Assembly: GCF_002896875.1 (NCBI RefSeq)
Contig: NZ_CP023278.1
Span: 6,454,501 to 6,518,500, forward strand
Direction: 5' to 3'
Length of the DNA: 64,000 nucleotides
Source: Nostoc sp. CENA543
Lineage (GTDB): Bacteria > Cyanobacteriota > Cyanobacteriia > Cyanobacteriales > Nostocaceae
Position 1 is the stretch's first letter; each line of letters starts with the position of its first letter. Shown here in pieces: positions 18,932-33,600 of the stretch. The notes under the pieces are model-generated. The model did not search any database and had not been told where the DNA came from. It saw only the letters and a list, made by a program, of their open reading frames with translations. Made by a program: the position numbers and the translations under genes.

Positions 18932-18961
18932 TTGCACTGGGAATTTTAAAATAAGATGCAA

Positions 18962-19622: not shown

Positions 19623-21938
19623 TCACCGTGCTTCTCCTATTAATGTAAATCCAGCCCAATCTTTAGGGTGAGGATGCTGTTTCTTAGTGGTTAACATCGC
19701 CTGGCGTAAGGCTTGGGCTTTATCAGGATTTTGTTTTAACTGTCGATAAAATTCCGTAGTGAAAACGTTTGTGGGTGTATCGGGTGCTGCCCATTGTGAA
19801 ATAATCACACTGGGAACGCCAGCATTAATTAAGGCCAAAGATAAACCTAACATACCGTTCCCCATACTACCACTACCTTTTTCTCCCGCACTCAAGAAAA
19901 CTAATCTAGCTTTTAGACGCGCGCCTTTTGGTTGGGTATAAAGATTGAGGATTTCACTAGCGGTGAGGAGTCCGTTATTGTCAGCAATACTGGCTAAGGC
20001 GATCGCGCCTGGGATGCCTTGTCTTTTGGTATCATCGATGACAGCGTAGGTTGCCAAATGAATGGTTTTGGCTTTAGGTAATAAAGGTAAAACATCTGCT
20101 TTGGTGGCTTTATTACCAACTAAAGCATTAGTTTTGAAGAAATCTGCAATTTCTAAGGCTTCTTGTTCGGCATTAACTAATTGTGGTAAAGACTGTTTTT
20201 CGATTTTGGGCATAGTGGGATTACCTACCACTACTACTTTACTACCGCCTGTATTGTTGCGTTTTTCTCTAGTTAATTTGAGTAGCTGAATTGATGGGAT
20301 GGTAGTAATTGTGTGTTTATCAATTAAATATTTATCGTAAATATCGACTAAAGCCGGAAACGGGACAAATAATAATTCGTTTTGGGGAATAAAAATTACT
20401 TGTTCTGTAGGATTTGTTGGTAATAAATCTGCTATGGGTTTAATGAGGATTTGATTGAGTTGTAGTAATATATTTTTGTAATTAGCGGTGGAATTTTGAG
20501 GATTTTTGACACCCAAGGCTATAGGAGTTTGATGAATTAACTCGACAACCGAGTTAAACGGAATAATCTTCTTTTGTGATGCGATATCTACTTTGCGAAA
20601 TGTGACTTTACCACTAGGCTGCATTACCCAGATATAAATTTCACTATCTTCGATTAAGGAATATCTAACAATGGTGGCTTTTTGTTGTTTAGCTATGGCT
20701 TGAATTTGAGTAATTGTTGGGATAATAATTTCTTTGGGTGCGGCTTTTAAACTACTACCTGCTGATTCTGTGGCTAAACGCATTCCCATCAAGTTTAAAA
20801 TTTTCATGATGCTACTTTGTTCAGCAACTTTTAAAGCGTCTTCCGGCTGATTTTGAGTGACTAAAACCTGTTCTAGTAAATTATATGTATTTGTTTGTTC
20901 AGTCGAATAATCAATAGTATTATTTAAGTTTGAGCGTAAAGTCTCCCAGATTTTAATACTAGCTTCTAAGTTGGTTTGTGCCTCATTGATTTTACCTGAC
21001 TTGAGTAAAACAAAGGCGAGATTATTTAAGGCTACGCCTTGAGTGTAAATATCTTTATTAGTTTTGGCATTATCTAATTGTTGCTGATATAATGCTAAGG
21101 CTTGGTCGTATTGTTTAGCAGATGTATAAACACGCCCCAATTGCTTAATTAATTCGGCTTGTTGGCTGGGGATTTTTGAGGTTTCTAGCTGTTGTTGATA
21201 GAGTGCGATCGCCTGCTCGAAACTACCTTGATTTTCGTAGGTTTTAGCGATTTGCTTTAAGGTAATATTAGTTAAGGCAATATCACTAGATTGGGTAGCA
21301 ATGGCTAATACTTGTTGATAAAAATTAATCGCTGGCTGATATTGTTTTAACTCTCGATTGACTACTGCTAGATTTTGTAGGGAGTATATTTCTAACTGGC
21401 GATTTTTGGTATCTTGGGCAATGGCTAATTGTTGTGTATGGAAAGCAATTGCTGATTCATATTCTTTTAGTTTTTCATGTCCTACACCGACGTTACCTAA
21501 AAATGATGCTTCTCTGGGAGGATTGCCGATTTCTTTTCTTAAAGCGGCGGCTTTTTCTCGCAGTTCTTGTGCTAGTTTTTCATCCCCAGTATAAATATAA
21601 GCATTACTCAAATGTTCTAACACTTGTACAGTCCCAGGTTGATCACCTGTGTTCTGCATGAAATTTAAACTTTGTTGATATAAATTAATCGCTGTTTGGT
21701 ATTTACCCAGGGTGAAATAAATTTCCCCTAAGCTTAAAAGTGTGTTGGCTTGTCCGGTGCGATCGCCTAATTCTTGATATAGTTTTAGTGACTCTTTTAA
21801 GGATACTAAGGCTGCTGTTAGTTGACCGTTATTGATTTGTCTATTTCCTAATCTTAGTAGTAAGTCAGCGCGGTATTGGTTGGCTGGTGTGGCGGTTAGG
21901 AGTATTGCAAGGAAGATGTTGGGAAGTTTTTTAAGCAT
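19623..21938 (-). CDS. TPR protein with catalytically degenerate CHAT domain
   Basis: 771 residues: a hydrophobic N-terminus (MLKKLPNIFLAILLTATPA, signal-like), about eight to ten TPR units (about 20-350, with repeats of the type ALYQQQLD and AINLYQQSL), a linker, and a C-terminal CHAT (caspase HetF-associated with TPRs) domain (about 470-771) ending DWAGFTLIGEA. In active CHAT proteases the motifs are HLATHG and LSACETG. Here they read HLATYA (Tyr631 in place of His) and LSAGEKG (Gly685 in place of Cys). The domain is therefore probably not a protease and may act as a binding scaffold. It is followed by the non-coding block and tpsB, and preceded by the wHTH/Ig membrane protein 134 bp upstream, all on one strand. 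Confidence 0.88.
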   Translation of the reverse strand: MLKKLPNIFLAILLTATPANQYRADLLLRLGNRQINNGQLTAALVSLKESLKLYQELGDRTGQANTLLSLGEIYFTLGKYQTAINLYQQSLNFMQNTGDQPGTVQVLEHLSNAYIYTGDEKLAQELREKAAALRKEIGNPPREASFLGNVGVGHEKLKEYESAIAFHTQQLAIAQDTKNRQLEIYSLQNLAVVNRELKQYQPAINFYQQVLAIATQSSDIALTNITLKQIAKTYENQGSFEQAIALYQQQLETSKIPSQQAELIKQLGRVYTSAKQYDQALALYQQQLDNAKTNKDIYTQGVALNNLAFVLLKSGKINEAQTNLEASIKIWETLRSNLNNTIDYSTEQTNTYNLLEQVLVTQNQPEDALKVAEQSSIMKILNLMGMRLATESAGSSLKAAPKEIIIPTITQIQAIAKQQKATIVRYSLIEDSEIYIWVMQPSGKVTFRKVDIASQKKIIPFNSVVELIHQTPIALGVKNPQNSTANYKNILLQLNQILIKPIADLLPTNPTEQVIFIPQNELLFVPFPALVDIYDKYLIDKHTITTIPSIQLLKLTREKRNNTGGSKVVVVGNPTMPKIEKQSLPQLVNAEQEALEIADFFKTNALVGNKATKADVLPLLPKAKTIHLATYAVIDDTKRQGIPGAIALASIADNNGLLTASEILNLYTQPKGARLKARLVFLSAGEKGSGSMGNGMLGLSLALINAGVPSVIISQWAAPDTPTNVFTTEFYRQLKQNPDKAQALRQAMLTTKKQHPHPKDWAGFTLIGEAR

Positions 21939-22071: not shown

Positions 22072-24825
22072 CTAATCAAATCCTGGAGGTAGTTCTAAGG
22101 GTGAGAGTTTTCCTGGTTGGGAGGGGGTGGGTGATGTGGGGAGGGGTGCGGATGATGGTGAACCAGGGGTATTACCTGGGGTGTTTGGTTGATTTTGTGC
22201 GGTTGGGGGTGGGGGAATAACGGGGGGTGTGGGTTGTGTGGTGGGGAGTTGGGGGAGTTGGGGTTGGTTGGGGTTCGGTGTTTGGATGGGTAGTGCAAAG
22301 GTTTCGATAGTAACTGAACGACTGATTTTTTCACCAGTGGGACTGGTAGCTTGGAGGATGATGGTTTCACTACCTGGTTGATTATTGATGGGGTAAACTA
22401 TCGTTCCACTGCGGGGAATGTTACCAGGTGCGGGTAACAATTCTGTTGTCATTTCGCTGCTACCTTCTACTTTCCAACTGAAGTTAATTGCTTGTTTGGC
22501 TTGACTTTGGGTGTCAATAGGAATTTGATATTTGGGGAGGGGTTCACTACCGTTAATTTTGAATTCGACAATTTGACTGGGTAATGGTTGGACTTTAATT
22601 ACATCTGTTTTTTGCGAGATGCTTGGTTTATCAGTGTCGGTTTTGGCAAATACTTGTAGTTCAAAAATATAGTTACCGATGGTACTGTTTTTGGTGGGGA
22701 CGCTACGACAGGTTAATTGATTTTGTTCGTTGCGACAAAACGGTTGTAATGTGTCGGGAATTTCCCCTTGATTAAATTGATAAGTTTGCAATTCACTATT
22801 AACTACACCTTCCGGCGATCGCCCAATTATTTGGATTTGATTAATCTTATCTAAATCGCTAACTTTCCAATTTAATCGAATTGTATCGGCACTAATTTGT
22901 TTACCAGTTTTTAAGGTGGCTGGTACTTCTTGATAGGTAGGTTTAACGGCAGCAAATTCGAGAATTTTCGCCGGAGGAATAGGAATAATTTTAATAGTAT
23001 TAGTCTTAATTGTGTCTACGGCTTCTTCAGGATTTTTGCTGCTAAATGCTTGCAATTCAAAAATATAATCTCCTGGTTTCCGCGCATCGGTGGGGATATT
23101 GGCACAAGTTAATGTGTTTTGTAACTGACAATATGATTGGAGTTCTGTGGGGATTTTTCCATTAAAGTTATAAACTACCGGTTGTACCGCTACTGAACCA
23201 TCGGCAAAGACTCCAGTAATGGTCAATGTTTGCAATGTTTTAGGATAGCGAATTTGCCAGTTTAAACGAATATTGCCATTATTAGCTTGTTGATAGGAAG
23301 CATCGGAAGACTGAAAACGGACGATTTTTGGGGATGCGGGGGGTTTTAATAGCAACCATAGCAGAAAGGCGATCGCGGCGATACTGCCTAACACCGTTAG
23401 TATAAACAGTAATAATTGCCACCAAGGACGCGCTTCCCAAATCACTGTCCCAGGAAGGGAAGGGTTAGGTAAGGGAAATTGTTGTTGGTCTACTAATTCA
23501 ATGCGAAAGTTAAGTAAGCGTCCTGCACCAAATATTGGTCGTGACCACCATCTTACAGGTGTGATTGTCACCTGGGAAATAGCTTTTTCTCCTGGTAATA
23601 CCCGCAATACAGGGGGAGTGGTAACGTAAGTACAAATTTTATCTTCGTCTGCGGGGACTGGTGTACAGACAATTTCTCGGACGGTGTTACCTGCGTTGGT
23701 TAACCTAATTTCAAAGACTCCAGCTTTGCGGCGTACCCTTCCCACCACCGTCAACAGTTCTGCATTTAGCAAATAGGAAGGTAAAACCTGCACATACACC
23801 ACATCTAACAGTACCAAATCAGGATTGTTAGCAGAGTATAAACGCAAAGTCGGATAGTAAATCCCCGCCGTTACCCCTAATGGGGGGTGGAATTGCAATA
23901 AAATTTGTCCAGTTTCCCCAGGGTTGAGATTCAAACCCATATTGGGAATAATTAACCCGGCTGTTTCCAAACCTTCGGGGTAGCGGATAGTGTACCAATT
24001 ATCGCCGCAGTCAGAACAACTCAGACGAAACCTATCTACCCTATCAGAACGGTTGTGGACGTTGACGCTAAGTTGCAAGATACCGCCAGGGGGAATTGGT
24101 GCAGGCGATCGCGAACTACTCGCCGGGATAACATTAAAAGTAGGGTCACTAACTCTAACAACCGTTTCAATTGCTGGTAATACCTGGAGTTTCGCCGTGT
24201 GACGGATAGGCGTATCCTCTGGGTAATGTTCCGGTGCATCTACAACTATCACATAGTTATAGGTGCTAGGAATCGCCGTTATTGGGACATTAAATTCAAA
24301 TAGCACCTCACCTATGGAATTAGGACTCAATGCCAACCTTTGATGAGGTGCATCACACCATTGAATCAACTGCGGCGATAAATCATCAATAAAAACATTA
24401 ATTAATGCACTTTCTGCACCTTTATTAGTAACTGTAATATGAATTTCAAACCGAGAACCCGCCTGTACAGCATAATCTCCTGAAGGGTTGAAAATAATCG
24501 CTAAAGGACTACCCGGTGCTAAAACTTGTTGAATTGTTTCCTGTTGAATCCCCTGTTTTGGTGCAAGATATACACGATATTTCAGATCATCATCATGGGT
24601 AAGAACAGTTTGAATAAAATCTTGGTCAAGTAACTCGTCTAAGATATTAAGAGTTGCTTGCTGATTTAAATCTAAATGATAAGCCGCTTCAGCTAAAGTA
24701 GCACCATCAGGTTTATTCTTTAGCATCCACTGCACAAGTTTTCGTTGTTGAGTCGGCAGAGTTAATATATCCGCCATACTCAAGCCAAGCTTAGAATTTT
24801 TATTACGAGAATTTGTTAAAGTCAT
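22072..24825 (-). CDS. Membrane protein with N-terminal winged helix and multiple Ig-like domains
   Basis: 917 residues. Residues about 17-95 look like a winged-helix/MarR-like fold (LTLPTQQRKLVQWMLKNKPDG, LAEAAYHLDLNQQATLNILDELL, then a wing with YRVYLAP). Residues about 100-450 hold three or four beta-sandwich (NEW3/COG1470-like) domains with sequences such as RFEIHITVTNKGAES and GILQLSVNVHNRSDRVDRF. One transmembrane helix follows (about 468-492, WWQLLLFILTVLGSIAAIAF), then three further Ig-like domains (about 500-830) with two conserved Cys pairs, and a Pro-rich tail. The same beta-sandwich type occurs in the two neighbouring upstream genes of this block. The topology (DNA-binding-like domain on one face, Ig domains on both) is unusual. 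Function not known; a structural or anchoring role with the baseplate genes is inferred from context. Confidence 0.75.
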   Translation of the reverse strand: MTLTNSRNKNSKLGLSMADILTLPTQQRKLVQWMLKNKPDGATLAEAAYHLDLNQQATLNILDELLDQDFIQTVLTHDDDLKYRVYLAPKQGIQQETIQQVLAPGSPLAIIFNPSGDYAVQAGSRFEIHITVTNKGAESALINVFIDDLSPQLIQWCDAPHQRLALSPNSIGEVLFEFNVPITAIPSTYNYVIVVDAPEHYPEDTPIRHTAKLQVLPAIETVVRVSDPTFNVIPASSSRSPAPIPPGGILQLSVNVHNRSDRVDRFRLSCSDCGDNWYTIRYPEGLETAGLIIPNMGLNLNPGETGQILLQFHPPLGVTAGIYYPTLRLYSANNPDLVLLDVVYVQVLPSYLLNAELLTVVGRVRRKAGVFEIRLTNAGNTVREIVCTPVPADEDKICTYVTTPPVLRVLPGEKAISQVTITPVRWWSRPIFGAGRLLNFRIELVDQQQFPLPNPSLPGTVIWEARPWWQLLLFILTVLGSIAAIAFLLWLLLKPPASPKIVRFQSSDASYQQANNGNIRLNWQIRYPKTLQTLTITGVFADGSVAVQPVVYNFNGKIPTELQSYCQLQNTLTCANIPTDARKPGDYIFELQAFSSKNPEEAVDTIKTNTIKIIPIPPAKILEFAAVKPTYQEVPATLKTGKQISADTIRLNWKVSDLDKINQIQIIGRSPEGVVNSELQTYQFNQGEIPDTLQPFCRNEQNQLTCRSVPTKNSTIGNYIFELQVFAKTDTDKPSISQKTDVIKVQPLPSQIVEFKINGSEPLPKYQIPIDTQSQAKQAINFSWKVEGSSEMTTELLPAPGNIPRSGTIVYPINNQPGSETIILQATSPTGEKISRSVTIETFALPIQTPNPNQPQLPQLPTTQPTPPVIPPPPTAQNQPNTPGNTPGSPSSAPLPTSPTPSQPGKLSPLELPPGFD

Positions 24826-24837
24826 GATATTAAAAAT

Positions 24838-24935
24838 TGGTCAATAGTCAATAGTCAATAGTCATTAGTCAATAGTCATTAGTCATTAGTATTTCTTCCC
24901 CAGTCCCCAGTCCCCAGTCCCCAGTTCCCAGTCCC
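24838..24935. repeat. STRR arrays: TCAATAG/TCATTAG heptamers and CCCCAGT heptamers
   Basis: About seven TCAATAG/TCATTAG units (24840-24889) are followed by about five CCCCAGT/TCCCAGT units (24897-24935) between two co-directional genes. Confidence 0.9.
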
Positions 24936-27095
24936 CTAACTCTTACAATAATTATTATCTGGAGCGATTACATCTAACCTCACCCGATGATCGTCATTGC
25001 CGCTAATAATTAAAATGCGGTTTCTGACAATTTTTATATCAACACTATTAAACTTTTGAGAATTAGTACGCACTTCCCTACCATTTGGTAAAGCGCGTCT
25101 CCCATCTTTTGTGAGTGGCCATAACATCACCCGATTATCATCACCACCACTAACTAAATAACAACCATCTCTACTTAGTGCTACTGAACGTACAGGTTTA
25201 CCTTTATGTCCATCACTCCATTGATCAATTAATTCACATTGGCTACTATTTTGACTGAGACATGACTCCATATTCCATAAAGTAATCTGTCCTCTCGTAT
25301 CAGCAACTGCTAATGAATTTGGTTTGTATTCAGCACTAGCTAAACTCACAATATAGTCATTCTGACTACCTGGGTTAGTGTAGGAAATTTTTCTTAATTT
25401 ATCTGCTTGAGAATTCCAAATTGCTAAATTGTTATATCTACCACCAATTACTAAGTCCTGTTTATCTTTTCCCACCAGTGCTAAACCATAAGCTGAAAAA
25501 TTTACATTTCGCCTTTTCGTCGGTTCTTTGATAATTTCAGAATTACCTAACAGTGCGTCATTGACATCCCATTTTAAAATCCAGCCACTACCATGCGCGC
25601 TAAATAAGTAGTGAGAATCTTCGCTAAATTCTAAATTAAGGACTCTATCTGCTGGATTAAATAAGAAGGTTACTTTAGGCTCTTTTCTACCTCTTATCAC
25701 ATCCAAAAGTTGAATTTCCCCGTTCTCTAAACCTGCTGCAACTATATCATTATCTACAGGTTTATAACGGACAACTCGTACTGATTTACCTATATTATTA
25801 GCAATTTTGCCATCATGTTGATTAATCAAAGGATTCCGAAATCCAGCTACAGTCCATCTAATAATACTTTGATCTTGAGAACCACTCACAGCTTTATCTG
25901 CTGTACCATTAAACTGGACAAAATTCACAGGTTTATGATGTCCAAATAATGGATTATTCGGATTTAGCCAGGAAACTGCCCAAAGTAAACATAACAATAA
26001 AAGTGCTAAAATTAATTGCAGAACAGGATGTAAAACTGGATGAATAATCAACCGAATAAATAAATTTTCATTGTTAATATTAACACGCTGATCTGATACG
26101 ATAGATTTAACTATAAAAGATAATTTTTTCGCTAATCCAAACCAATGTCTACGGTTACTGATGATAATTTGTAATTGCTGGGTTTCTCCTGGGTTTAATA
26201 GTAGACTTTCTGGTTGAATATTGAAAGTGCATTTGGGTTGATTTTCATGACCATCTCGAATCTCAATATGTGCAGTTTGTGTTAGATTGCTGATATTGTG
26301 AAATTCCAGGTTATAAGTTGCAGAATTATTTTTCCATTGTGGTAGCCAAAGCCTATCAACCGGAATTTGTTGCTTTTCTGGGATACAATGAAAATCGACG
26401 AATCCCCCAGGCACAACTTTAATTTTACCTTCAGAACTTAGGGAAGGTGTAGCATTAGGATGGGTAGCTTCAATTTGAAAAGTATATGTTTTACTAGGAA
26501 CTTCTGTAGGAATTGGTAGTTGACAAGAAAAAGAAGTTTCTGCTTTCTCACCAGGAGAAACTGGTAATAATTTCGTCTCATTACCTAATAACCATGTCGG
26601 TTCTAATCCCATCATTCTTAGAGAGACTGTAGCAGGTATTTGACTAGGATTAAAAACACGAACTGGAATTTCAATTGACTCTTGTGGCTGGGTGGTAAAC
26701 TCTCGAATAGGTAACTCGACTTGTACAGGTATAGCACCAATTCCGGCTTCGACATCTAAGCGTAAAATTTGCCTATCTTCTTCTCGTAATTCTACAGAAA
26801 ATACCCGCACTATCAAGTTAATCTTACCGATAAAACCTACAATGGGTGTATCGGTGATCGTCACATAAAACTTGACAAGATCTCCTGGTGGGTTTTTGGC
26901 ACTAACAGCAGGCTTAATATTGTACCAATTAGTGCCTAAATTTGAGTTGCTACCAGCAGCAGTAATTTCCAGTTGGAATGATGCAAATTGATTGCTGTCA
27001 TTCACAACATTCACTTCAAATGATGCTGGTTGTCCACCTGGTTTAAAGGTAACTTTTTTAACGGAGATATTGGCGTTAATGAGTTTAATAGCCAT
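24936..27095 (-). CDS. Single-pass membrane protein: Ig-like domains plus C-terminal WD40 propeller
   Basis: 719 residues. N-terminal half (about 5-340) is at least two or three beta-sandwich domains (KKVTFKPGGQPASFEVNVVN; IEIPVRVFNPSQIPATVSLRM; LEFHNISNLTQTAHIEIRDG). One strong hydrophobic helix (about 350-368, LQLILALLLLCLLWAVSWL) is followed by WD40 repeats (about 375-715) with GH...WD-like signatures (SGSQDQSIIRWTVAG, LFSAHGSGWILKWD, SGGDDNRVMLWPL). Domain types match the neighbouring wHTH/Ig protein, and the pair is probably co-transcribed. WD40 propellers mediate protein-protein contacts. No enzymatic motif. I infer a scaffold that links the membrane to cytoplasmic partners, possibly the baseplate proteins encoded upstream. 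Confidence 0.78.
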   Translation of the reverse strand: MAIKLINANISVKKVTFKPGGQPASFEVNVVNDSNQFASFQLEITAAGSNSNLGTNWYNIKPAVSAKNPPGDLVKFYVTITDTPIVGFIGKINLIVRVFSVELREEDRQILRLDVEAGIGAIPVQVELPIREFTTQPQESIEIPVRVFNPSQIPATVSLRMMGLEPTWLLGNETKLLPVSPGEKAETSFSCQLPIPTEVPSKTYTFQIEATHPNATPSLSSEGKIKVVPGGFVDFHCIPEKQQIPVDRLWLPQWKNNSATYNLEFHNISNLTQTAHIEIRDGHENQPKCTFNIQPESLLLNPGETQQLQIIISNRRHWFGLAKKLSFIVKSIVSDQRVNINNENLFIRLIIHPVLHPVLQLILALLLLCLLWAVSWLNPNNPLFGHHKPVNFVQFNGTADKAVSGSQDQSIIRWTVAGFRNPLINQHDGKIANNIGKSVRVVRYKPVDNDIVAAGLENGEIQLLDVIRGRKEPKVTFLFNPADRVLNLEFSEDSHYLFSAHGSGWILKWDVNDALLGNSEIIKEPTKRRNVNFSAYGLALVGKDKQDLVIGGRYNNLAIWNSQADKLRKISYTNPGSQNDYIVSLASAEYKPNSLAVADTRGQITLWNMESCLSQNSSQCELIDQWSDGHKGKPVRSVALSRDGCYLVSGGDDNRVMLWPLTKDGRRALPNGREVRTNSQKFNSVDIKIVRNRILIISGNDDHRVRLDVIAPDNNYCKS

Positions 27096-27407
27096 ATGGG
27101 GAGTGATGAGTGCTGAGTGATGATTTGGTATTTAGGGAATGGGGAATATAAGTAGAATAAAGTCAATTATTAAAGTTTTGTAGTGAGAACTTTAGTTCTC
27201 TCTCCGAGATGCTTGTCTGCGAAACACTCCGCGTAGCTTTCTACCACGTTCGTGGTAGCGTTGCGTAGCAAAGTGGGACGCGAACAGAAAAGGACTAAAG
27301 TCCTTACTACGAACTGAATTCCCGTATTTTTACATCGTTTAACATAGGTTGTTTTTTTCAATTGTTATATTTCAGGTATATTTTTCTAGTTTGAATTGTG
27401 AATTTAT
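27096..27407. repeat. Intergenic region with MITE-like element (GTAGTRAGRACTTTAGT ends)
   Basis: Positions 27180-27310 form an element whose left end (GTAGTGAGAACTTTAGTTCT) and right end (AGGACTAAAGTCCTTACTAC) are imperfect terminal inverted repeats. Each end is itself a small hairpin, and the inside is GC-rich. A shorter relative lies at 42821-42887 in opposite orientation. The remaining ~170 bp is AT-rich and empty. Confidence 0.6.
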
Positions 27408-28664
27408 TTATTCTTCTAGTTTGTTGAAAACGTTTTGTAAAGCATTGGGTTTAGTGGGTGTAGATGGTGTATTAGATGGGGGAGAAATAAATTGTTTTTG
27501 TAATTGAGTCATTTGCTTTCTTGACCAAGCAAAATGTAAGATATTAATTCCTAATTCTTGAGCAGTGCGAATAGTTTCTCGCGGTAAAGTAAGTTTTTCA
27601 TCTATTCCCCAAGCCTCTGATAAATCACCTATGACTAAAACGATGCCACCTGCAATTAAGATTTGAATAGGCTTTTGATTAATTACTGGTAAAGCCGCGA
27701 ATAAAAACGGGTTTGTCCGCATGGGATGATTGCGGTCTAGTTTACGTAAATCTTCCAAAGGCGTATTAAATTTGTCGGCAATATCAACTACACTGTCTAA
27801 TCTGTCTATAGCATCAGTTGGTGATTCAACTAACAACACGCCGCCAGCATCTAAATAGCTTTTGAGATTAGTTAATTCTTGGGTATCTAAAGATAGTGGT
27901 TGATTACCCGTGGTAAATAACAAATCATAAAATACTGCCTGATCAATATGTTGTAGATGCAATGGTATGCGATCAACACTTCCAGATCCTTGGATAGTTT
28001 GGGTGAGATGTTCACTAGCTTTGAGTAAATAACAGAGATTAGCAAAATGATCACTAACTTCTGGTGTATTCGGTTGTAAATAAGCTACCCGCACAACAGC
28101 ACTATGACGCGATCGCGCTATGGGACGATAACGCAAATCTAAACTATTCAAATCTGGGTAAAATACATCTTGGGGATTTTTTAAAGGGATTAATCCTGGC
28201 TGCAACACAATCCGACACAATTCCACCTCTAAAGCATTAGGTGGCGTAGTTTTTTCTTCAATCCGAAAAGATTCAGGTTCAAATTCAGCGACTTTTTGAC
28301 GTTGTAAATCATCGGGATCTACATAACTCACCACCAGATAAATCAGACGAGGTTTATCTTCTGTAATATCAGCCGAAACGTGAAAATCGATGGCTTGAGG
28401 GACAATAATCGGATTACCGTGAATATCAATTGCTAATCCTGGTTGAATTTGCAACCATCGACCATCGTTATATTGTGAAGAAATCCCTTGTGGGACAGGA
28501 ATCAGACACACACCCAAACCATAGACAATTCCCGGCTGATTAAGAGACTGATAGTGAATATTTTGCCTTTGACGGTGATAATTGTGCGATCGCTGCCATT
28601 TTTCCGCATTGATCAATAAACCATCTTGTACCTGTAATCGTTCTAGCGGTTTGAGTTCTTCCAT
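27408..28664 (-). CDS. Protein of unknown function in the contractile-injection/baseplate cluster
   Basis: 418 residues, soluble. The N-terminal half (MEELKPLERLQVQDGLLINAEKWQ; YGLGVCLIPVP; WLQIQPGLAIDIHGNPIIVP; RLIYLVVSYVDPDD) resembles proteins encoded beside phage-tail-like baseplate genes, where this GLAIDxxGxPI segment recurs. Residues about 245-385 contain a DUF4159-like or Rossmann-type stretch (AVFYDLLFTTGNQPL, LKSYLDAGGVLLVESP, INILHFAWSRKQM). It lies 117 bp downstream of the tail-protein-I type gene on the same strand. I infer an accessory baseplate or tail component; no fibre or enzymatic signature is visible. Confidence 0.65.
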   Translation of the reverse strand: MEELKPLERLQVQDGLLINAEKWQRSHNYHRQRQNIHYQSLNQPGIVYGLGVCLIPVPQGISSQYNDGRWLQIQPGLAIDIHGNPIIVPQAIDFHVSADITEDKPRLIYLVVSYVDPDDLQRQKVAEFEPESFRIEEKTTPPNALEVELCRIVLQPGLIPLKNPQDVFYPDLNSLDLRYRPIARSRHSAVVRVAYLQPNTPEVSDHFANLCYLLKASEHLTQTIQGSGSVDRIPLHLQHIDQAVFYDLLFTTGNQPLSLDTQELTNLKSYLDAGGVLLVESPTDAIDRLDSVVDIADKFNTPLEDLRKLDRNHPMRTNPFLFAALPVINQKPIQILIAGGIVLVIGDLSEAWGIDEKLTLPRETIRTAQELGINILHFAWSRKQMTQLQKQFISPPSNTPSTPTKPNALQNVFNKLEE

Positions 28665-28800
28665 AGGTGGGGACTGGGGAGGTAGAGGGCAGGGGGCAGG
28701 GGGCAGGGGGCAGGGGAGATAAGGTAGACAAGGTAAAATCTTTTACCTAATGACTAATAACTAATGACTAATGACTAATGACTATTGACTATTGACTATT
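28665..28800. repeat. G-rich heptamer array and TAATGAC/TATTGAC STRR
   Basis: GGCAGGG units (about 28685-28716) are followed by an AGATAAGGTAGACAAGG stretch and seven to eight TAATGAC/TATTGAC heptamers (28744-28803). The latter run into the 3' end of the tail-protein gene and supply its last codons and stop. Confidence 0.9.
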
Positions 28801-29840
28801 GACTGTTCTACGCACAACTCATAAGTACAAAAAGCTGGTTTTTCTTGTTCGATGATGTGACGAACTAATTGTTCGTCGATTTGGTTGGGACGTTGGGGAC
28901 GAAGACGGACGATAAAGTGATAAGGACGACCACCGCCAATCATTGCATCTTGACCAATGCGAGTGTTACCTAATACAAAACCTTCACCGCGAATTTCCTC
29001 AATACAAATATGTTTATCAGTTTCTGAAACCAGATGATCATCTAAAGGTAAATCTGTATAAAGATGTAAATAAAGTCTCAAACCCCGCTTTGTTCCACGC
29101 CAACGATATAGTTCTACAGCCGAACGAATTAAAAAGCGTTGTCTTGCTAAACTCCAGCGTTGGTCAATTGGCCAGGCTACCCAATGCGCCAAAAAAGGTA
29201 ATAAAGCCTGGGGTGCTGTCATCGGGTCTAAGTATGACCAAAGCACATCCAAGGTTTGCACTGTGGGTTCAAAAGCCTGCTCAAAAATTTTCAAGAAGCG
29301 ACCAATAAAGTCTACTTCTCGATAAAGTGCAGGTATAAATTTTAGGTATAAACTCCGAGGACGTACATACAAATTTAACGCCCCAGTTTCCACAAATTGT
29401 CTATTAGTACCTTGTTCTGTATAGTAAACATGAATACGGCAGTGAAAATCTAACATCAAAGGATGATTAGGTGTAATCGCCGCTTGTTTTTCAAAAAAAT
29501 CCTCTGGAACGTTGAAACAAAGCACCACACTCATCTGTGCTTTCGGATCAAAGACGAAAGGCCCTTGTTTATCGGGTTCTGTGTGAATAGAACACCATTC
29601 ACTAGGAAAATTCCCTTCAATTTGTACCCTTAAATTGAGACTGCGATCGCCTAAATTTTCCAACTGCAACAATATTTCACTAGGTTCTCTAGGATAAACA
29701 ACGACATCACAACCTGAAAGGTTGGTATTCGTCGCTAAATTAAACGGTACTAAAGAAGTATTTTGAGATGCTGCTGCTGTTGACGGTTGCAGCGCATCTG
29801 GTTGTTGCATGGGAGTTAACTGTAAACTTAAAGACACCAT
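28782..29840 (-). CDS. Tail-protein-I type baseplate protein with N-terminal Ig-like domain
   Basis: 352 residues. Residues about 175-345 match the phage tail protein I-like domain found in extracellular contractile injection systems (TIGR02242 type): LYLKFIPALYREVDFIGRFLKIFEQAFEP, LDPMTAPQALLPFLAHWVAW, RWRGTKRGLRLYLHLYT and the FIVRLRP strand. In place of a short N-terminus there is an added ~130-residue beta-sandwich (about 40-165: REPSEILLQLENLGDRSLNL, SVVLCFNVPEDFF) of the same kind as in the two membrane proteins downstream. It follows the J-type gene by 19 bp, so they form an operon. By analogy (Afp12-like) the protein sits in the baseplate wedge. The last residues IVNSQ are encoded by the heptamer array. 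Confidence 0.82.
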   Translation of the reverse strand: MVSLSLQLTPMQQPDALQPSTAAASQNTSLVPFNLATNTNLSGCDVVVYPREPSEILLQLENLGDRSLNLRVQIEGNFPSEWCSIHTEPDKQGPFVFDPKAQMSVVLCFNVPEDFFEKQAAITPNHPLMLDFHCRIHVYYTEQGTNRQFVETGALNLYVRPRSLYLKFIPALYREVDFIGRFLKIFEQAFEPTVQTLDVLWSYLDPMTAPQALLPFLAHWVAWPIDQRWSLARQRFLIRSAVELYRWRGTKRGLRLYLHLYTDLPLDDHLVSETDKHICIEEIRGEGFVLGNTRIGQDAMIGGGRPYHFIVRLRPQRPNQIDEQLVRHIIEQEKPAFCTYELCVEQSIVNSQ

Positions 29841-29859
29841 TTCCTTTTGCCTTCTACTG

Positions 29860-32067
29860 TTATTGAATTAAATTCACTACATGACCAGAACGCAAAGCAG
29901 TATTTTGCCAAGAACAAATTAATCCTAGATTTCCAGGATCAATTACGGGGTTTTGGGGTTGCGATCGCTCCCAATGATCCCTGATGTAGCGGATTTCAAA
30001 TAGTTGTACGACTCCCAAATAACGCACAGCCGGGAATTTCTGGAATAGAGTCACAATATCGGAAGGATATACCGGACGACCAAACGGCCAACCTTGACCA
30101 TCATGTCCGCCTGTAATGGGGTTGAGGAAGCGATAAAGGGCGATGCGTAATTTTCCTAAAATTTCTTGTTGGGCTGAGGGATGATTGTATTCTGGCTCTA
30201 AGGCGACTTCCGTTTGCACTGCAACACCCACATATTCTGGTGCTTGTAGTTTGACTTGCACACCTAATAATCGCCGTTCATCTAAATAAGCTAATATCTG
30301 ATTGCGGAGTTGGGGAGTCAGATTAAATAATTCTGGTTCAATCCCTTCCGCACGGTTAATTGCGTCAGTATTCGCCGCCGGTACAACCAATAACCGGACT
30401 GTCCCCGCTTCTTTCGTCGCATTGGGTGGTAAACAACGCACCCGCGCCACTGCACCCGCACCAGCTTGCAGCGTCAAAACTTCAAAATCTTCAGGAGTAA
30501 CAGCGCGATCGCGTGTTCGCAGCATCGCCGGCACACGAATCACCGCATCTTCCAAAGATTCCGCATCTGCACCATTCCGCGCCGGTGCATGATTAGTCAC
30601 ACGGGCTACATAAGGTACAGCCGTCTTAGCGACAGTAATTGTCCCCCGTTGCACATTTCCCTTACGTCCTCCCCCCGTGCGATAAGCCACCATCCGAATC
30701 ACCGCACCCCGTGGCGGTACAGCCCCATATTGTCGTTCTAATTCTTGTGTATTGGGTAATAGAGAAGGGGAATTAATTGTCCCCATTCCCCATTCTCCAT
30801 TCCCTAATACCCGCCTCCATTCCGTCTGCTGCTGAATTTGGGCTGGTTCACGAATTAAAGGGCCAAACTGTACTAAACCTGTGCGGGAATCAATGGTGTA
30901 GTGTCTATCCTGAGAACTAGAATTAGCAAAATCGCTGACCTCATACCATATCTGCGAAGATAAACTGCCTGGAGGTAATATTTCTATATGTTCACCTTCC
31001 CGACGATTTAACACCGGAAATTGCTGTAATTGAAACGTTTGTCCCGGTGTACCGTCACTTTCCCCTAGAATTTCATCATAAATCAACTCACTTTGACTAG
31101 CTCCCACAGTCCCACCAATGGCGCGCGCCGATAAACCCACAATGCGGGGAGATGAACTAAACCCCGGCTGATTGGCTTGAGGAGTCGTGTAAACGCAACG
31201 CAACCAACGCCCTTGGAAAGCAGTAAAAGTAGTTACAGGCCAAGATTGGGGTAAATGTAACACCACATCTGCACCTTGCAGGGGATTAGCACCTTGAGCC
31301 GCCAACTCACTAAAACTAAAACCCTTGGTACTATCATCAGATTCTTGGAGTAAAACTGATACCCACTCAATCCCGTTCCAAGCTTCCCAACGTCGTGGCG
31401 GTGCATCAGGATTAATCCCTGTACTAGTGGCGGCTTCTCCCTTAAATTGCAGTGCTAAAACATTCCCCTCACACTGACAACTACCATCAATCACGATATA
31501 AAAACTATTACCAGGCTGGGGTTGTTCATCAAAAAAAGCCAATTCCCTACCGTACCAGTTTTCATCAGGAGTTTGCGCCCAAATATTAGTAAAGCGATCG
31601 CGTAAAATCGAGGGTATAGTTTCCGTCGTCTGGGCAGAGAGAAAATGGCGAATTAAAGGTTTATCAATAATTAAAGACCGATCTGTAGTGAAAGCGATCG
31701 CCTCCTCAGTTTCCGTGCGAACCGTCGCCACCTCCACACCAGCCGGAATTGTATACCTATTAGGTAAAGCCGCACTCAAATAAAAAGTAATATCTGCCAT
31801 AGCAGGAGCAGGTGCTTGCAACCGTACCCCCAGCAACTCTAAAAAAGTAATATAATTGCGCTTCGGTACTTCGTTGAAGCGCAACAGCATTTGGTCAGTC
31901 AACCAAGCAAATAACTCAATCAGCGTGATTCCTGGATCACTAGGGTTATAGTTAGTCCACTCTGGACAATAGCGAGGAATCCTTAAAACACACTCATCAA
32001 CCAAATCTTTAAACGTGCGATCGTCCAGATTTGACTTAGGTAACTTCGGTAAAAAATCAAATTCCAC
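29860..32067 (-). CDS. Baseplate J-like assembly protein of a contractile injection system
   Basis: 735 residues, in the size range of the TIGR02243 putative baseplate assembly proteins (Afp11-like). Diagnostic N-terminus: FLPKLPKSNLDDRTFKDLVD, CPEWTNYNPSDPGITLIELF, WLTDQMLLRFNEVPKRNYI. Baseplate-J features in the C-terminal half: RDRAVTPEDFEVLTLQAG, VRLLVVPAAN, ILAYLDERRLLGVQVKL and YPSDIVTLFQKFPAVRYLG. It forms wedge modules around the spike hub in contractile machines. A short insertion near residues 418-432 (LGNGEWGMGTINSP) is encoded by a GGGAATGG-type heptamer repeat. It lies between gp25 (111 bp upstream) and the tail-I gene (19 bp downstream). Confidence 0.9.
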   Translation of the reverse strand: MEFDFLPKLPKSNLDDRTFKDLVDECVLRIPRYCPEWTNYNPSDPGITLIELFAWLTDQMLLRFNEVPKRNYITFLELLGVRLQAPAPAMADITFYLSAALPNRYTIPAGVEVATVRTETEEAIAFTTDRSLIIDKPLIRHFLSAQTTETIPSILRDRFTNIWAQTPDENWYGRELAFFDEQPQPGNSFYIVIDGSCQCEGNVLALQFKGEAATSTGINPDAPPRRWEAWNGIEWVSVLLQESDDSTKGFSFSELAAQGANPLQGADVVLHLPQSWPVTTFTAFQGRWLRCVYTTPQANQPGFSSSPRIVGLSARAIGGTVGASQSELIYDEILGESDGTPGQTFQLQQFPVLNRREGEHIEILPPGSLSSQIWYEVSDFANSSSQDRHYTIDSRTGLVQFGPLIREPAQIQQQTEWRRVLGNGEWGMGTINSPSLLPNTQELERQYGAVPPRGAVIRMVAYRTGGGRKGNVQRGTITVAKTAVPYVARVTNHAPARNGADAESLEDAVIRVPAMLRTRDRAVTPEDFEVLTLQAGAGAVARVRCLPPNATKEAGTVRLLVVPAANTDAINRAEGIEPELFNLTPQLRNQILAYLDERRLLGVQVKLQAPEYVGVAVQTEVALEPEYNHPSAQQEILGKLRIALYRFLNPITGGHDGQGWPFGRPVYPSDIVTLFQKFPAVRYLGVVQLFEIRYIRDHWERSQPQNPVIDPGNLGLICSWQNTALRSGHVVNLIQ

Positions 32068-32087
32068 GATAATATAACCTGGTTTTA

Positions 32088-32190
32088 AAAGGGACTGGGG
32101 ATTGGGGAGGTAGAGGGCAGGGGGGCAGGGGGCAGGGGAGATAAGGAAGAAGAAGTGTTAATAACTAATGACTAATGACTATTGACTATT
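32088..32190. repeat. G-rich repeat plus TAATGAC heptamers
   Basis: GGGACTGGGGATTGGGGAGG, then GGCAGGGG units and AGATAAGG (32090-32143), then three to four TAATGAC/TATTGAC units (32164-32189). The array overlaps the gp25 gene's stop codon. The G-rich part closely resembles that at 28670-28725. Confidence 0.85.
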
Positions 32191-32598
32191 AACCCCATTC
32201 AGATAGAAAGGAAAAACTAAACTACGAGCATCATGAGTATCTTTTGGATGATACTGAATATGAATATTGACCCGACCCCGTAAAGGATCAGGTTCAGTAA
32301 AAACACCATCTAAAACAATGCGCGGTTCCCACATTTCCAACGCTTCTTGGACGTGCAGGCGCAGCAGTAATAAAGTTTGAGTATTCATCGGTGCAAAGGT
32401 CAACTCAGACAACCGTGAACCAAAATTAGGTCGATAAACCCTCTCACCCAAATCAGTACGCAGAATGAGCATAATCGACTCTTCAATGTTGCGTTCCTTG
32501 GCACTGAGTTGCAAACCCCCTTGGACATTAACCCTAAGTGGAAAAGACCAACCCGCACCCAAATGACTACGATGTTGATTTTGATTGACTTCTGGCAT
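32179..32598 (-). CDS. GPW/gp25-family baseplate wedge protein
   Basis: 139 residues, full length for the family. Diagnostic gp25 features: GAGWSFPLRVN, EERNIEESIMLILRTDLGERVYRPNFGS-type core (here AKERNIEESIMLIL then TDLGERVYRPNFGSRL), and WEPRIVLDGVF. gp25 (Afp9-like) joins the wedge and sheath initiation ring in contractile injection systems. It is the first unmistakable structural gene of the set on this strand; the next upstream gene is the 162-residue helical protein. The C-terminal residues NGVNSQ-stop are read from the heptamer array. Confidence 0.9.
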   Translation of the reverse strand: MPEVNQNQHRSHLGAGWSFPLRVNVQGGLQLSAKERNIEESIMLILRTDLGERVYRPNFGSRLSELTFAPMNTQTLLLLRLHVQEALEMWEPRIVLDGVFTEPDPLRGRVNIHIQYHPKDTHDARSLVFPFYLNGVNSQ

Positions 32599-32689
32599 GG
32601 TGTGTCAATGCTGACAAGCGTGTTTACGCTAAATTTACGCTCATCTGTCTCACCAAAACTATTCGCCAAAAGTCGAGCATTGAATTAGG

Positions 32690-32801
32690 GACTGGGGAAT
32701 AGAAGAGGAATTGGTGCAGGGTGCAGGGGGCATGGGGGAGAAAAATTTCCCCTTTTCTCCCTGCACCCTGCCCCCCTGCCTTCTTTTTGTCCCCAGTCCC
32801 C
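32690..32801 (+). repeat. Composite hairpin-forming repeat element (copy C)
   Basis: Read on the plus strand: GAAGAGGAATTGGTGCAGGG, G-rich heptamers, the core GGGGAGAAAAATTTCCCC, then TCTCCCTGCACCCTGCCCCC and CCCCAGTCCCC. The two G-rich and C-rich arms are complementary, giving a hairpin of about 80 bases. Near-identical layouts occur at about 36275-36390 (same orientation), and reversed at about 2159-2262, 15365-15450 and 34862-34998. Confidence 0.75.
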
Positions 32802-33290
32802 TCAATGAGACGTTTCACCAGGTGACTCTAAAGCCTGATCTAAAACCTGTCTAGCGTGTTCTGCTTTATTGCGTGCTTCTTGATACCGTAAATTGGCTTG
32901 AGCAAAATTCTTGAGAACCTTAAAACCTTCCTTGAGCCGGGTAATCTCTTCTTCCGTCACCGACTCATCAGAAAACAGCACATCAACAGCTTTACGAATT
33001 TCCAACGCTTCAGCACGAGATTCCTGAACTTTCAGCTTCAGTGTAGCCAGATTACTGAGAACCTGTACAGCTTGAGTAATCGCATCTTCACCGCTACTAG
33101 ACTCAGCCGTCGGCTCTTTTACTTCTATTAATTGTTGTGGGCCAAATCCTTCCTCTAATTCTGTAGGCAACTTGCCAGCGTTCATCAGTTCCAGTAACTG
33201 ATCCATTGCTTTATCACGAGCTTTAGCTGAATCTTTACCTGCAACAGTGAGGATAATTTCTGGGCTTTGGGCGAGAGTGTACTGAACCAT
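32802..33290 (-). CDS. Small helical protein upstream of the baseplate genes
   Basis: 162 residues. The N-terminus MVQYTLAQSPEIILTVAG with SAKARDKAMDQLLELMNAGKLP is a mixed alpha/beta segment. A Pro/Ser/Glu-rich linker (VKEPTAESSSGED) follows, and the C-terminal half (about 75-155) is strongly helical, coiled-coil-like (LKLKVQESRAEALEIRK, ARNKAEHARQVLDQAL). No signal peptide or transmembrane helix. It is 203 bp upstream of gp25, with a composite repeat in between, and points the same way, so it may be the first gene of the cluster or independent. I do not recognise the family. Confidence 0.65.
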   Translation of the reverse strand: MVQYTLAQSPEIILTVAGKDSAKARDKAMDQLLELMNAGKLPTELEEGFGPQQLIEVKEPTAESSSGEDAITQAVQVLSNLATLKLKVQESRAEALEIRKAVDVLFSDESVTEEEITRLKEGFKVLKNFAQANLRYQEARNKAEHARQVLDQALESPGETSH

Positions 33291-33349
33291 ATTCCCAACA
33301 GAAAATTTACTGATGAACTAAGCCTAAGAGATGAATCTTACCATAAGAC

Positions 33350-33600
33350 GGGTCAATAGTTATTAGTCAATAGTCAATAGTCAATAGTCATTAGTCATTA
33401 GTCATTAGAGAACAGGGGACAGTTTTTCTCCTCTCCTACCTTGTCTACCTTGTCTCCTCTTCCCAGTACCCAGTCCCCAATCCCCCATGCCCAAACTTTA
33501 TACTAGAAGAAAGGTAAATCAGGTTTAAGTTCAAGCCCCGAATTTATTTTATGGGGTAATTAATTTTGAATTTTGAATTTTGAATTTGGAGCGAAGCGAC
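33350..33600. repeat. Intergenic repeats: TCAATAG/TCATTAG array, pyrimidine repeat, TTTTGAA array
   Basis: STRR units at 33352-33407, CTACCTTGTCTACCTTGTCTCC-type and CCCCAGT units at about 33430-33490, and three to four TTTTGAA/ATTTTGA heptamers at about 33562-33588, ending just before the next gene. GGAG at 33588-33591 can serve that gene as ribosome binding site. Confidence 0.75.

What the first reader, a model, noticed from the sequence alone, without database searches (positions are those of the whole stretch)
22072..33290. Partial contractile-injection baseplate module joined to Ig-domain membrane proteins
Seen: gp25, J-type and tail-protein-I type genes in the usual order on one strand, followed by a GLAIDxxGxPI protein and two single-pass membrane proteins. 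There is no sheath, tube, spike, LysM, tape-measure or AAA+ gene nearby, so the structural set is split. Known: thylakoid-anchored contractile injection systems occur in multicellular cyanobacteria, and baseplates can carry anchoring parts. Inferred: the downstream Ig/WD40/wHTH proteins are anchoring or sensing parts of such a machine rather than unrelated genes.
Basis: partly seen in the sequence, partly recalled or inferred. Interest (0 to 1): 0.75.

Follow-up and report, generated by a model that had tools for sequence, protein, structure and literature searches.

The report
Scattered cyanobacterial injection machine with membrane partners
The window holds one section of a spring-loaded, phage-tail-like injection machine whose other parts sit elsewhere on the same chromosome, and two membrane proteins beside it are inherited together with the machine, so they are probably its membrane docking or sensing partners.

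Summary
In detail: gp25, TIGR02243 baseplate-J, TIGR02242 tail-I, a CIS13/DUF4159-like protein and two single-pass Ig membrane proteins lie in order on the minus strand; no sheath, tube or spike was found in the window. The set is scattered, not incomplete: the same chromosome has sheath and tubes at 2.50 Mb, and a tube protein, LysM-type adaptor, VgrG and PAAR at 4.32-4.33 Mb. In 194 cyanobacterial genomes, Ig-WD40 occurs in 48 of 50 with this J and 0 of 144 without. Corresponding counts are 50 and 0 for CIS13/DUF4159, 50 and 0 for the close sheath, 47 and 0 for a pseudokinase-TM-PBP protein, but 41 and 61 for an adjacent bystander gene. Parts are mostly unlinked, yet six genomes carry them within about 40 kb. 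The tail-I protein has an N-terminal extension related to the Ig domains of both membrane proteins. I infer membrane docking and trigger sensing; localisation and contact are untested. By J it is not the Anabaena thylakoid lineage but nearer Streptomyces; the sheath tree does not settle this. New variant of a known kind.

The parts
32179..32598 (-). gp25-type baseplate wedge protein (Cis9-like), 139 aa
   Evidence: PF04965 E 3.5e-20; the only PF04965 match in the genome
29860..32067 (-). baseplate J protein (Cis11-like), 735 aa
   Evidence: TIGR02243 679 bits; nearest solved chain 9gtp_1K, S. coelicolor CIS, 398 bits
28782..29840 (-). tail protein I / Cis12-like wedge protein, 352 aa
   Evidence: TIGR02242 133 bits and NF053768 CIS12 74 bits (cut-off 860); residues 167-258 match 9gtp_E, a 190-aa chain deposited as 'Secreted protein' and read here as Cis12
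29346..29840 (-). N-terminal Ig-like extension of the Cis12-like protein (about residues 1-165)
   Evidence: outside the match to 9gtp_E; profile match to the first Ig of the wHTH-Ig-TM family E 1.6e-7 and to the Ig-WD40 family E 7.1e-6, each for a single comparison
27408..28664 (-). Cis13-like / DUF4159 protein, 418 aa, carries GLAIDIHGNPI
   Evidence: NF053767 E 9.4e-9 (35 bits, cut-off 370) and PF13709 E 3.1e-14; in 50 of 50 J genomes (G184 weakly, 47 bits) and 0 of 144 others at E 1e-10 (compared by hand)
24936..27095 (-). Ig-TM-WD40 membrane protein, 719 aa
   Evidence: WD40 in the C-terminal half; TM residues 358-376; Ig part (residues 1-370) in 48 of 50 against 0 of 144
25968..26024 (-). 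membrane segment of the Ig-WD40 protein
   Evidence: hydropathy 2.48; a central segment passes the threshold in 16 of 17 aligned sequences, window included
22072..24825 (-). wHTH-Ig-TM-Ig membrane protein, 917 aa
   Evidence: TM residues 471-489, a central segment in 13 of 13 aligned sequences, window included; Ig-TM half homologous to Ig-WD40, E 1.9e-18 over 375 columns
23359..23415 (-). membrane segment of the wHTH-Ig-TM protein
   Evidence: hydropathy 2.81

Best explanation
The window carries the baseplate-wedge and membrane-adaptor section of a contractile injection system whose other genes lie at two or more further loci of the same chromosome. Shown by computation: the parts are co-inherited and the Ig domains are related. 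Inferred: the particle assembles in the cytoplasm; the N-terminal Ig extension on its Cis12-like wedge protein docks on the Ig arrays of two bitopic proteins, which hold it at a membrane. The third co-inherited bitopic protein (pseudokinase-TM-periplasmic-binding-protein, 4.32 Mb locus), and in some relatives a HAMP-containing protein (with dCache in one and a Tll0287-like domain in another), report conditions on the far side of the membrane and license firing. Likely role, by analogy with the Streptomyces and Anabaena systems: stress-triggered piercing of the cell's own membrane.
For: Own genome: sheath and three tubes at C1 2.495-2.499 Mb with DUF4255/Pvc16 proteins at 2.499 and 2.502 Mb; tube, LysM-type CIS_tube PF19266, VgrG and PAAR at 4.323-4.334 Mb. 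In 194 genomes, with J (50) against without (144): Ig-WD40 48/0, DUF4159 50/0, close sheath 50/0, close VgrG 49/0 (E 1e-60), pseudokinase-TM-PBP 47/0 (E 1e-40). Bystander 32802-33290: 41/61 (counted by hand). At least nine genera hold genomes with and without J, and Ig-WD40 switches with J in each. J and sheath are over 100 kb apart on one contig in 11 genomes and within 30 kb in 12 of 50. Joined forms in G066, G162, G169, G141, G189, G082. Related Ig domains. HAMP sensor proteins between DUF4159 and Ig-WD40 in G006, G057 and G073.
Against: No localisation or interaction data. Membrane topology is argued from domain type, not from charges, which are ambiguous. The Ig match between the Cis12-like protein and the membrane proteins is modest (hhalign probability 84-94, single comparisons). 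No homology was found between the Streptomyces CisA-like protein and the pseudokinase or the wHTH-Ig protein. G081 (79% complete) lacks both Ig proteins. G184 keeps sheath and J with weak DUF4159 (47 bits) and pseudokinase (38 bits) matches, lacks Ig-WD40, and shows only a 37-bit match to the C-terminal part of wHTH-Ig-TM, so Ig-WD40 is not essential to every member. The HAMP sensor gene is absent from the window and from several relatives' neighbourhoods. Counts are not corrected with a species tree, and the bystander shows that background association is not zero.
Confidence: 0.68

Rival explanations
1. The Ig membrane proteins are assembly or quality-control factors, or regulators of CIS expression, that travel with the machine but do not anchor it or trigger firing.
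For: Co-inheritance shows functional association only. The window's wHTH-Ig protein has an N-terminal stretch read by eye as a winged helix, and 11 of 144 genomes without J have proteins that match only this part.
Against: Ig relatedness with the wedge protein itself, conserved membrane segments, and HAMP sensor genes at one gene position in some relatives fit docking or sensing better.
Confidence: 0.2
2. It is a thylakoid-anchored CIS of the Anabaena type with rearranged genes.
For: Both are cyanobacterial; both have an extended Cis12 and a Cis13-like protein; anchoring by baseplate extensions is published (PMC8894136, parts 1-2 of 8 read).
Against: J is 23 bits from All3317 against 398 bits from S. 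coelicolor. The J tree separates this lineage from other cyanobacterial CIS (97/91). Other-lineage clusters in G178, G087, G109, G118, G190 and G015 show no Ig or pseudokinase protein in the stretches read. The 16 genomes whose only J match is distant all lack Ig-WD40. The Cis13-like protein lacks a clear membrane helix.
Confidence: 0.08
3. The window holds a remnant or exapted baseplate without a working contractile tail.
For: No sheath, tube or spike found in the window.
Against: Close sheath, tube, LysM-type, VgrG and PAAR genes with open frames lie elsewhere in this genome. J and sheath are also far apart on one contig in ten other genomes, so the split is not decay of this one.
Confidence: 0.02
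4. The membrane-protein genes are chance neighbours of the baseplate genes.
For: Neighbourhoods vary; one neighbour (32802-33290) is indeed a bystander.
Against: Ig-WD40 tracks J at 48/50 against 0/144 and keeps doing so where the two genes are unlinked, e.g. G193, over 100 kb apart on one contig.
Confidence: 0.02

Closest known systems
Streptomyces coelicolor cytoplasmic CIS (subtype IId) with the membrane protein CisA (PDB 9GTP; PMC12237407, abstract and passages read)
   Same: J and sheath are closest to it among solved chains (398 and 394 bits). A bitopic membrane protein that is not part of the particle is needed for firing there; bitopic partners are co-inherited here.
   Different: Here there are three bitopic proteins (Ig-TM-WD40, wHTH-Ig-TM-Ig, pseudokinase-TM-PBP), and CisA shows no profile similarity to the two compared. 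Cis12 has an extra N-terminal domain. Genes are often scattered. The sheath tree places Streptomyces with three other cyanobacterial sheaths at 84/93.
Anabaena thylakoid-anchored CIS, all3313-all3327 (PMC8894136, parts 1-2 of 8 and search passages read)
   Same: Cyanobacterial CIS with an extended Cis12, a Cis13-like protein and presumed membrane attachment.
   Different: Anabaena anchors by a Cis13 membrane helix and its Cis12 extension, in one cluster; J is only 23 bits similar; no Ig or pseudokinase proteins were found in the six other-lineage clusters read here, which were not shown to be of the Anabaena type.
Chloroflexota/Deinococcota CIS of subtype IId (PMC12998442, passages read)
   Same: Placed by its authors in the lineage of the Streptomyces cytoplasmic CIS.
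   Different: 'Ig-like', 'WD40' and 'transmembrane' occur 0 times in its main text.

Membership tests
Contractile injection system | baseplate wedge: gp25, J and tail-I proteins together | tested here: met
Contractile injection system | contractile sheath and inner tube of the same lineage in the genome | tested here: met
   unlinked locus 2.495-2.499 Mb; close sheath in 50 of 50 J genomes
Contractile injection system | spike (VgrG), PAAR and LysM-type adaptor | tested here: met
   4.331-4.334 Mb locus; the PAAR call is weak (22.6 bits, cut-off 124)
Contractile injection system | AAA+ ATPase (Cis15-like) | tested here: inconclusive
   AAA+WHD relative at C1:24118-25929, but the family matches 78 of 194 genomes and is often multicopy
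Contractile injection system | tape-measure protein | not tested
   a long repeat protein between tube and LysM-type genes is a candidate by position only
Contractile injection system | assembled contractile particles | not testable with these tools
   needs purification or cryo-ET
Anabaena-type thylakoid CIS | Cis13 with C-terminal transmembrane helix | tested here: not met
   only a weak hydrophobic stretch (residues 327-345, 1.69) inside the DUF4159 domain
Anabaena-type thylakoid CIS | J/Cis11 of the same lineage | tested here: not met
   23 bits to All3317 against 398 to S. coelicolor; the J tree did not include All3317 itself
Anabaena-type thylakoid CIS | Cis19 crown protein | not tested
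   no Cis19 sequence was used as a query
Anabaena-type thylakoid CIS | particles in thylakoid pores | not testable with these tools
   needs tomography
Streptomyces-type CIS (subtype IId) | J groups with Streptomyces against other cyanobacterial CIS | tested here: met
   split supported 97/91, 26 rows; several long branches flagged
Streptomyces-type CIS (subtype IId) | sheath groups with Streptomyces | tested here: inconclusive
   closest solved sheath is Streptomyces, but the 25-row tree joins Streptomyces to three other cyanobacterial sheaths at 84/93
Streptomyces-type CIS (subtype IId) | CisA homologue | tested here: inconclusive
   no profile similarity of CisA to the pseudokinase or wHTH-Ig proteins; Ig-WD40 was not compared with CisA, and the genome was not searched with CisA

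The most novel reading that the evidence does not exclude
A separate, membrane-docked mode of contractile injection: cytoplasmic particles are held at a membrane by Ig-Ig contacts between the wedge protein and two bitopic receptors, and are fired on a signal read by extracytoplasmic WD40, PBP and HAMP-linked sensor domains. The machine is kept as a dispersed but tightly co-inherited set of genes across cyanobacteria.
Probability: 0.4. Interest if true: 0.82.

Novelty: new variant of a known kind. Interest (0 to 1): 0.64.

Why it matters
How free CIS particles are brought to a membrane and told to fire is open; CisA is the one published adaptor outside the particle that I met in the passages read. 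Here is a co-inherited set of three membrane proteins, two of them sharing their Ig domain type with the baseplate wedge, in about a quarter (50 of 194, by J) of sampled cyanobacteria. It gives concrete candidates for receptor, dock and trigger. It also shows that CIS genes can be scattered over the chromosome while staying a unit of inheritance, so surveys that require a compact gene cluster would miss or truncate such systems.

Tried and rejected
Pure partial or degenerate module: rejected after the sheath, tube and spike loci were found.

GTPase/WD40 trio beside VgrG and PAAR in the own genome (dynamin-like 733 aa, small GTPase 316 aa, TM-WD40 404 aa): looked attractive because of a second TM-WD40 protein. 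All three were among the references; the two GTPases appeared as a listed match in none of the relatives' stretches, also not beside VgrG and PAAR of G107 from the same genus (L154). The TM-WD40 protein gave only low WD40-type matches. Not counted as parts.

CisA as homologue of the pseudokinase-TM-PBP protein: the published description (C-terminus like periplasmic substrate-binding domains) suggested it. The protein beside J in Streptomyces loci that fits CisA (TM, C-terminal domain; identification by position and layout, mine) has zinc ribbons and a weak F5/8-type C-terminal domain, and profiles do not match. Kept as analogy only.

Gene 32802-33290 as a CIS part: rejected. CHAT-TPR (19623-21938) and ShlB/FhaC (17201-18961): among the references, CHAT was listed in no relative's stretch, and a ShlB relative in one (G189, L050, beside the pseudokinase). 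Neither was tested by co-occurrence.

Structure prediction of the tail-I protein alone gave pLDDT 44 and was not used.

Literature: searches aimed at cyanobacterial or WD40/Ig-associated CIS listed no paper whose title or abstract start describes these membrane proteins with a CIS. One search showed 20 of 21 papers and one search showed 15 of 102; the others showed all. The library lacks most subscription papers and supplements were not available.

Corrected on re-checking: the number of stretches read, the role of the GTPases as references, the number of mixed genera, and several thresholds. CisA membership was changed to inconclusive.
Full report
WHAT IS THERE. The window is G000:C1:6454501-6518500 of a 7.2 Mb genome. 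On the minus strand, gp25 (32179-32598), J/TIGR02243 (29860-32067), tail-I/TIGR02242 (28782-29840), a CIS13-like/DUF4159 protein (27408-28664), an Ig-TM-WD40 protein (24936-27095) and a wHTH-Ig-TM-Ig protein (22072-24825) follow one another. Both membrane proteins have one strong membrane segment in the middle; it passes the threshold in 13 of 13 aligned wHTH-Ig sequences and 16 of 17 Ig-WD40 sequences, window included. The Ig label rests on weak Pfam hits and the wHTH label on reading by eye. That the host, and so the sampled class, is cyanobacterial is my inference from gene content; the tools name no taxon for it.

THE REST OF THE MACHINE IS ELSEWHERE. Family searches of the same genome gave a sheath and three tube genes at 2.495-2.499 Mb and a fourth tube at 4.323 Mb. 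DUF4255/Pvc16 genes lie at 2.499 and 2.502 Mb. Around the fourth tube lie a 2533-aa repeat protein, a LysM-type CIS_tube protein, VgrG and PAAR. Just before that tube is a 754-aa kinase-like-TM-PBP protein (PF12849 36 bits, over its cut-off; PF00069 20 bits, below its cut-off). In the ten aligned copies the catalytic-loop motif (HGN in seven, HGH, HGQ and YGN in one each) never has the aspartate of HRD, so I call it a pseudokinase (read; the motif rule is recalled). A second sheath at 2.69 Mb belongs to what looks like a prophage.

CO-INHERITANCE. 194 genomes of the class, with the same handles each time, were searched in turn. J matched 66 at E 1e-10. I split these by hand at a gap between 263 and 117 bits of the best row into 50 'close' and 16 'distant only'. 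Against the 50 (144 others): Ig part of Ig-WD40 48 and 0 (E 1e-5); close sheath 50 and 0; VgrG 49 and 0 (E 1e-60); pseudokinase-TM-PBP 47 and 0 (E 1e-40). DUF4159 gave 50 and 0 (E 1e-10, compared by reading). The zeros hold at those thresholds: distant VgrG relatives do occur in other CIS. The sheath search as a whole matched 82 genomes; 'close' was set by hand at 57% identity or more (best rows 475 bits or more except a 206-bit, 82%-identity contig-end fragment in G003), against at most 261 bits in the other 32. wHTH-Ig-TM matched 49 of 50 and 18 of 144. Of the 18, 11 match only the wHTH part and 7 are weak Ig/TM paralogues. Misses: G081 (79% complete) lacks both Ig proteins; G184 lacks Ig-WD40 and matches wHTH-Ig-TM at 37 bits only; G177 lacks VgrG. 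Of the three pseudokinase misses, G193 has a copy in two frames and G184 a 38-bit match; G002 was not examined. The neighbour gene 32802-33290 serves as a control: 102 genomes, 41 of 50 and 61 of 144, within 10 kb of J only in the window's genome and G107 (counted by reading). So a background association exists, but it is far weaker. No species tree was available. At least nine genera (g1, g17, g27, g31, g37, g49, g65, g75, g91) hold genomes with and without close J, and Ig-WD40 switches with J in each; in g7 (G184, G022) neither genome has Ig-WD40 (non-matching genomes are only partly listed).

LINKAGE. Ig-WD40 lies within 15 kb of J in 36 of 48 genomes. The two Ig genes lie within 6 kb in 29 of 48. 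J and sheath lie within 30 kb in 12 of 50 and over 100 kb apart on one contig in 11, the window's genome included. Gene maps were read for 52 stretches from 25 other genomes of the lineage. In G066, G169, G162, G141, G189 and G082, J, sheath, VgrG and both Ig genes lie within about 40 kb of contig (positions). In G193 the order is DUF4159, Ig-WD40, wHTH-Ig, AAA+, DUF4255, sheath, tubes, pseudokinase, tube. In G107 a second set also carries its own Ig pair. In six clusters of other CIS lineages (G178, G087, G109, G118, G190, G015) no Ig or pseudokinase gene was seen in the stretches read; G190 has a 22-bit DUF4159-type match.

RELATED IG DOMAINS AND SENSORS. The two membrane families are homologous over Ig array and membrane segment (E 1.9e-18). 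The N-terminal stretch of the Cis12-like protein, outside the match to 9gtp_E, matches the first Ig of wHTH-Ig (E 1.6e-7, probability 94) and an Ig of Ig-WD40 (E 7.1e-6, probability 84). Between DUF4159 and Ig-WD40, Pfam named dCache+HAMP in G006, HAMP in G057 and Tll0287-like+HAMP+cNMP-binding in G073; G035 and G158 have a member of the G006/G057 cluster there too. The window and several relatives have none.

LINEAGE. J is 398 bits from S. coelicolor Cis11 and 23 bits from Anabaena All3317. The sheath is 394 bits from S. coelicolor and 180 bits from All3325. In trees of rows that I chose, this lineage is one group with 100/100 (sheath, 25 rows) and 100/99 (J, 26 rows). J supports this lineage with Streptomyces against the other cyanobacterial CIS (97/91). 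The sheath tree instead joins Streptomyces to three other cyanobacterial sheaths at 84/93. I therefore call it near the Streptomyces type by J and unsettled overall.

MECHANISM. Shown: co-inheritance, gene order, related Ig domains. Inferred: docking of the wedge on membrane Ig arrays, extracytoplasmic sensing, and a role at the cell's own membrane or in cell death. The last rests on published analogues only: Anabaena (PMC8894136, parts 1-2 of 8 and search passages read), Streptomyces (PMC12237407, abstract and passages), Chloroflexota (PMC12998442, passages).

Noticed in passing
L010:11653-19254 (own genome C1 about 4.324-4.331 Mb): A 2533-aa low-complexity repeat protein between tube and LysM-type genes (DNA periods about 108 and 201 bases). 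Seven relatives in which both neighbours were read have a long protein of very different length there (778 to 2050 aa), a possible tape-measure or cargo slot.
   Followed up: partly
L014:2482-6870: Dynamin-like protein, small GTPase and TM-WD40 protein directly downstream of VgrG and PAAR in the own genome; the GTPases were not seen in the relatives' stretches.
   Followed up: partly
L011-L013 (own genome about 2.68-2.712 Mb): Stretch that looks like a prophage, with its own contractile tail genes; gave the second sheath match.
   Followed up: partly
window 24840-24930, 28668-28803, 32096-32193, 33340-33500: Runs of heptamer repeats (GTCAATA/CATTAGT, CCCCAGT) lie in gaps between the CIS genes.
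   Followed up: no
window 32802-33290: Small gene beside gp25 that is a bystander: 102 of 194 genomes, within 10 kb of J only here and in G107.
   Followed up: yes
L148, L149 (G107 contig C44): A genome of the same genus has a second CIS set of this lineage with its own Ig pair and pseudokinase.
   Followed up: partly
L146:15124-17723 (G193): Pseudokinase-TM-PBP gene split over two frames in a cluster that otherwise looks whole.
   Followed up: no
L135:11372-16042, L140:2359-7136: Other-lineage cyanobacterial CIS clusters (G178, G190) carry two J-like genes side by side.
   Followed up: no
G094:C1: Six matches to the AAA+WHD (Cis15-like) family in one genome.
   Followed up: no
L050:12300-14648 (G189): A ShlB/FhaC-type relative directly beside the pseudokinase gene; the window also has a ShlB/FhaC gene near its Ig genes. 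Possibly chance.
   Followed up: no
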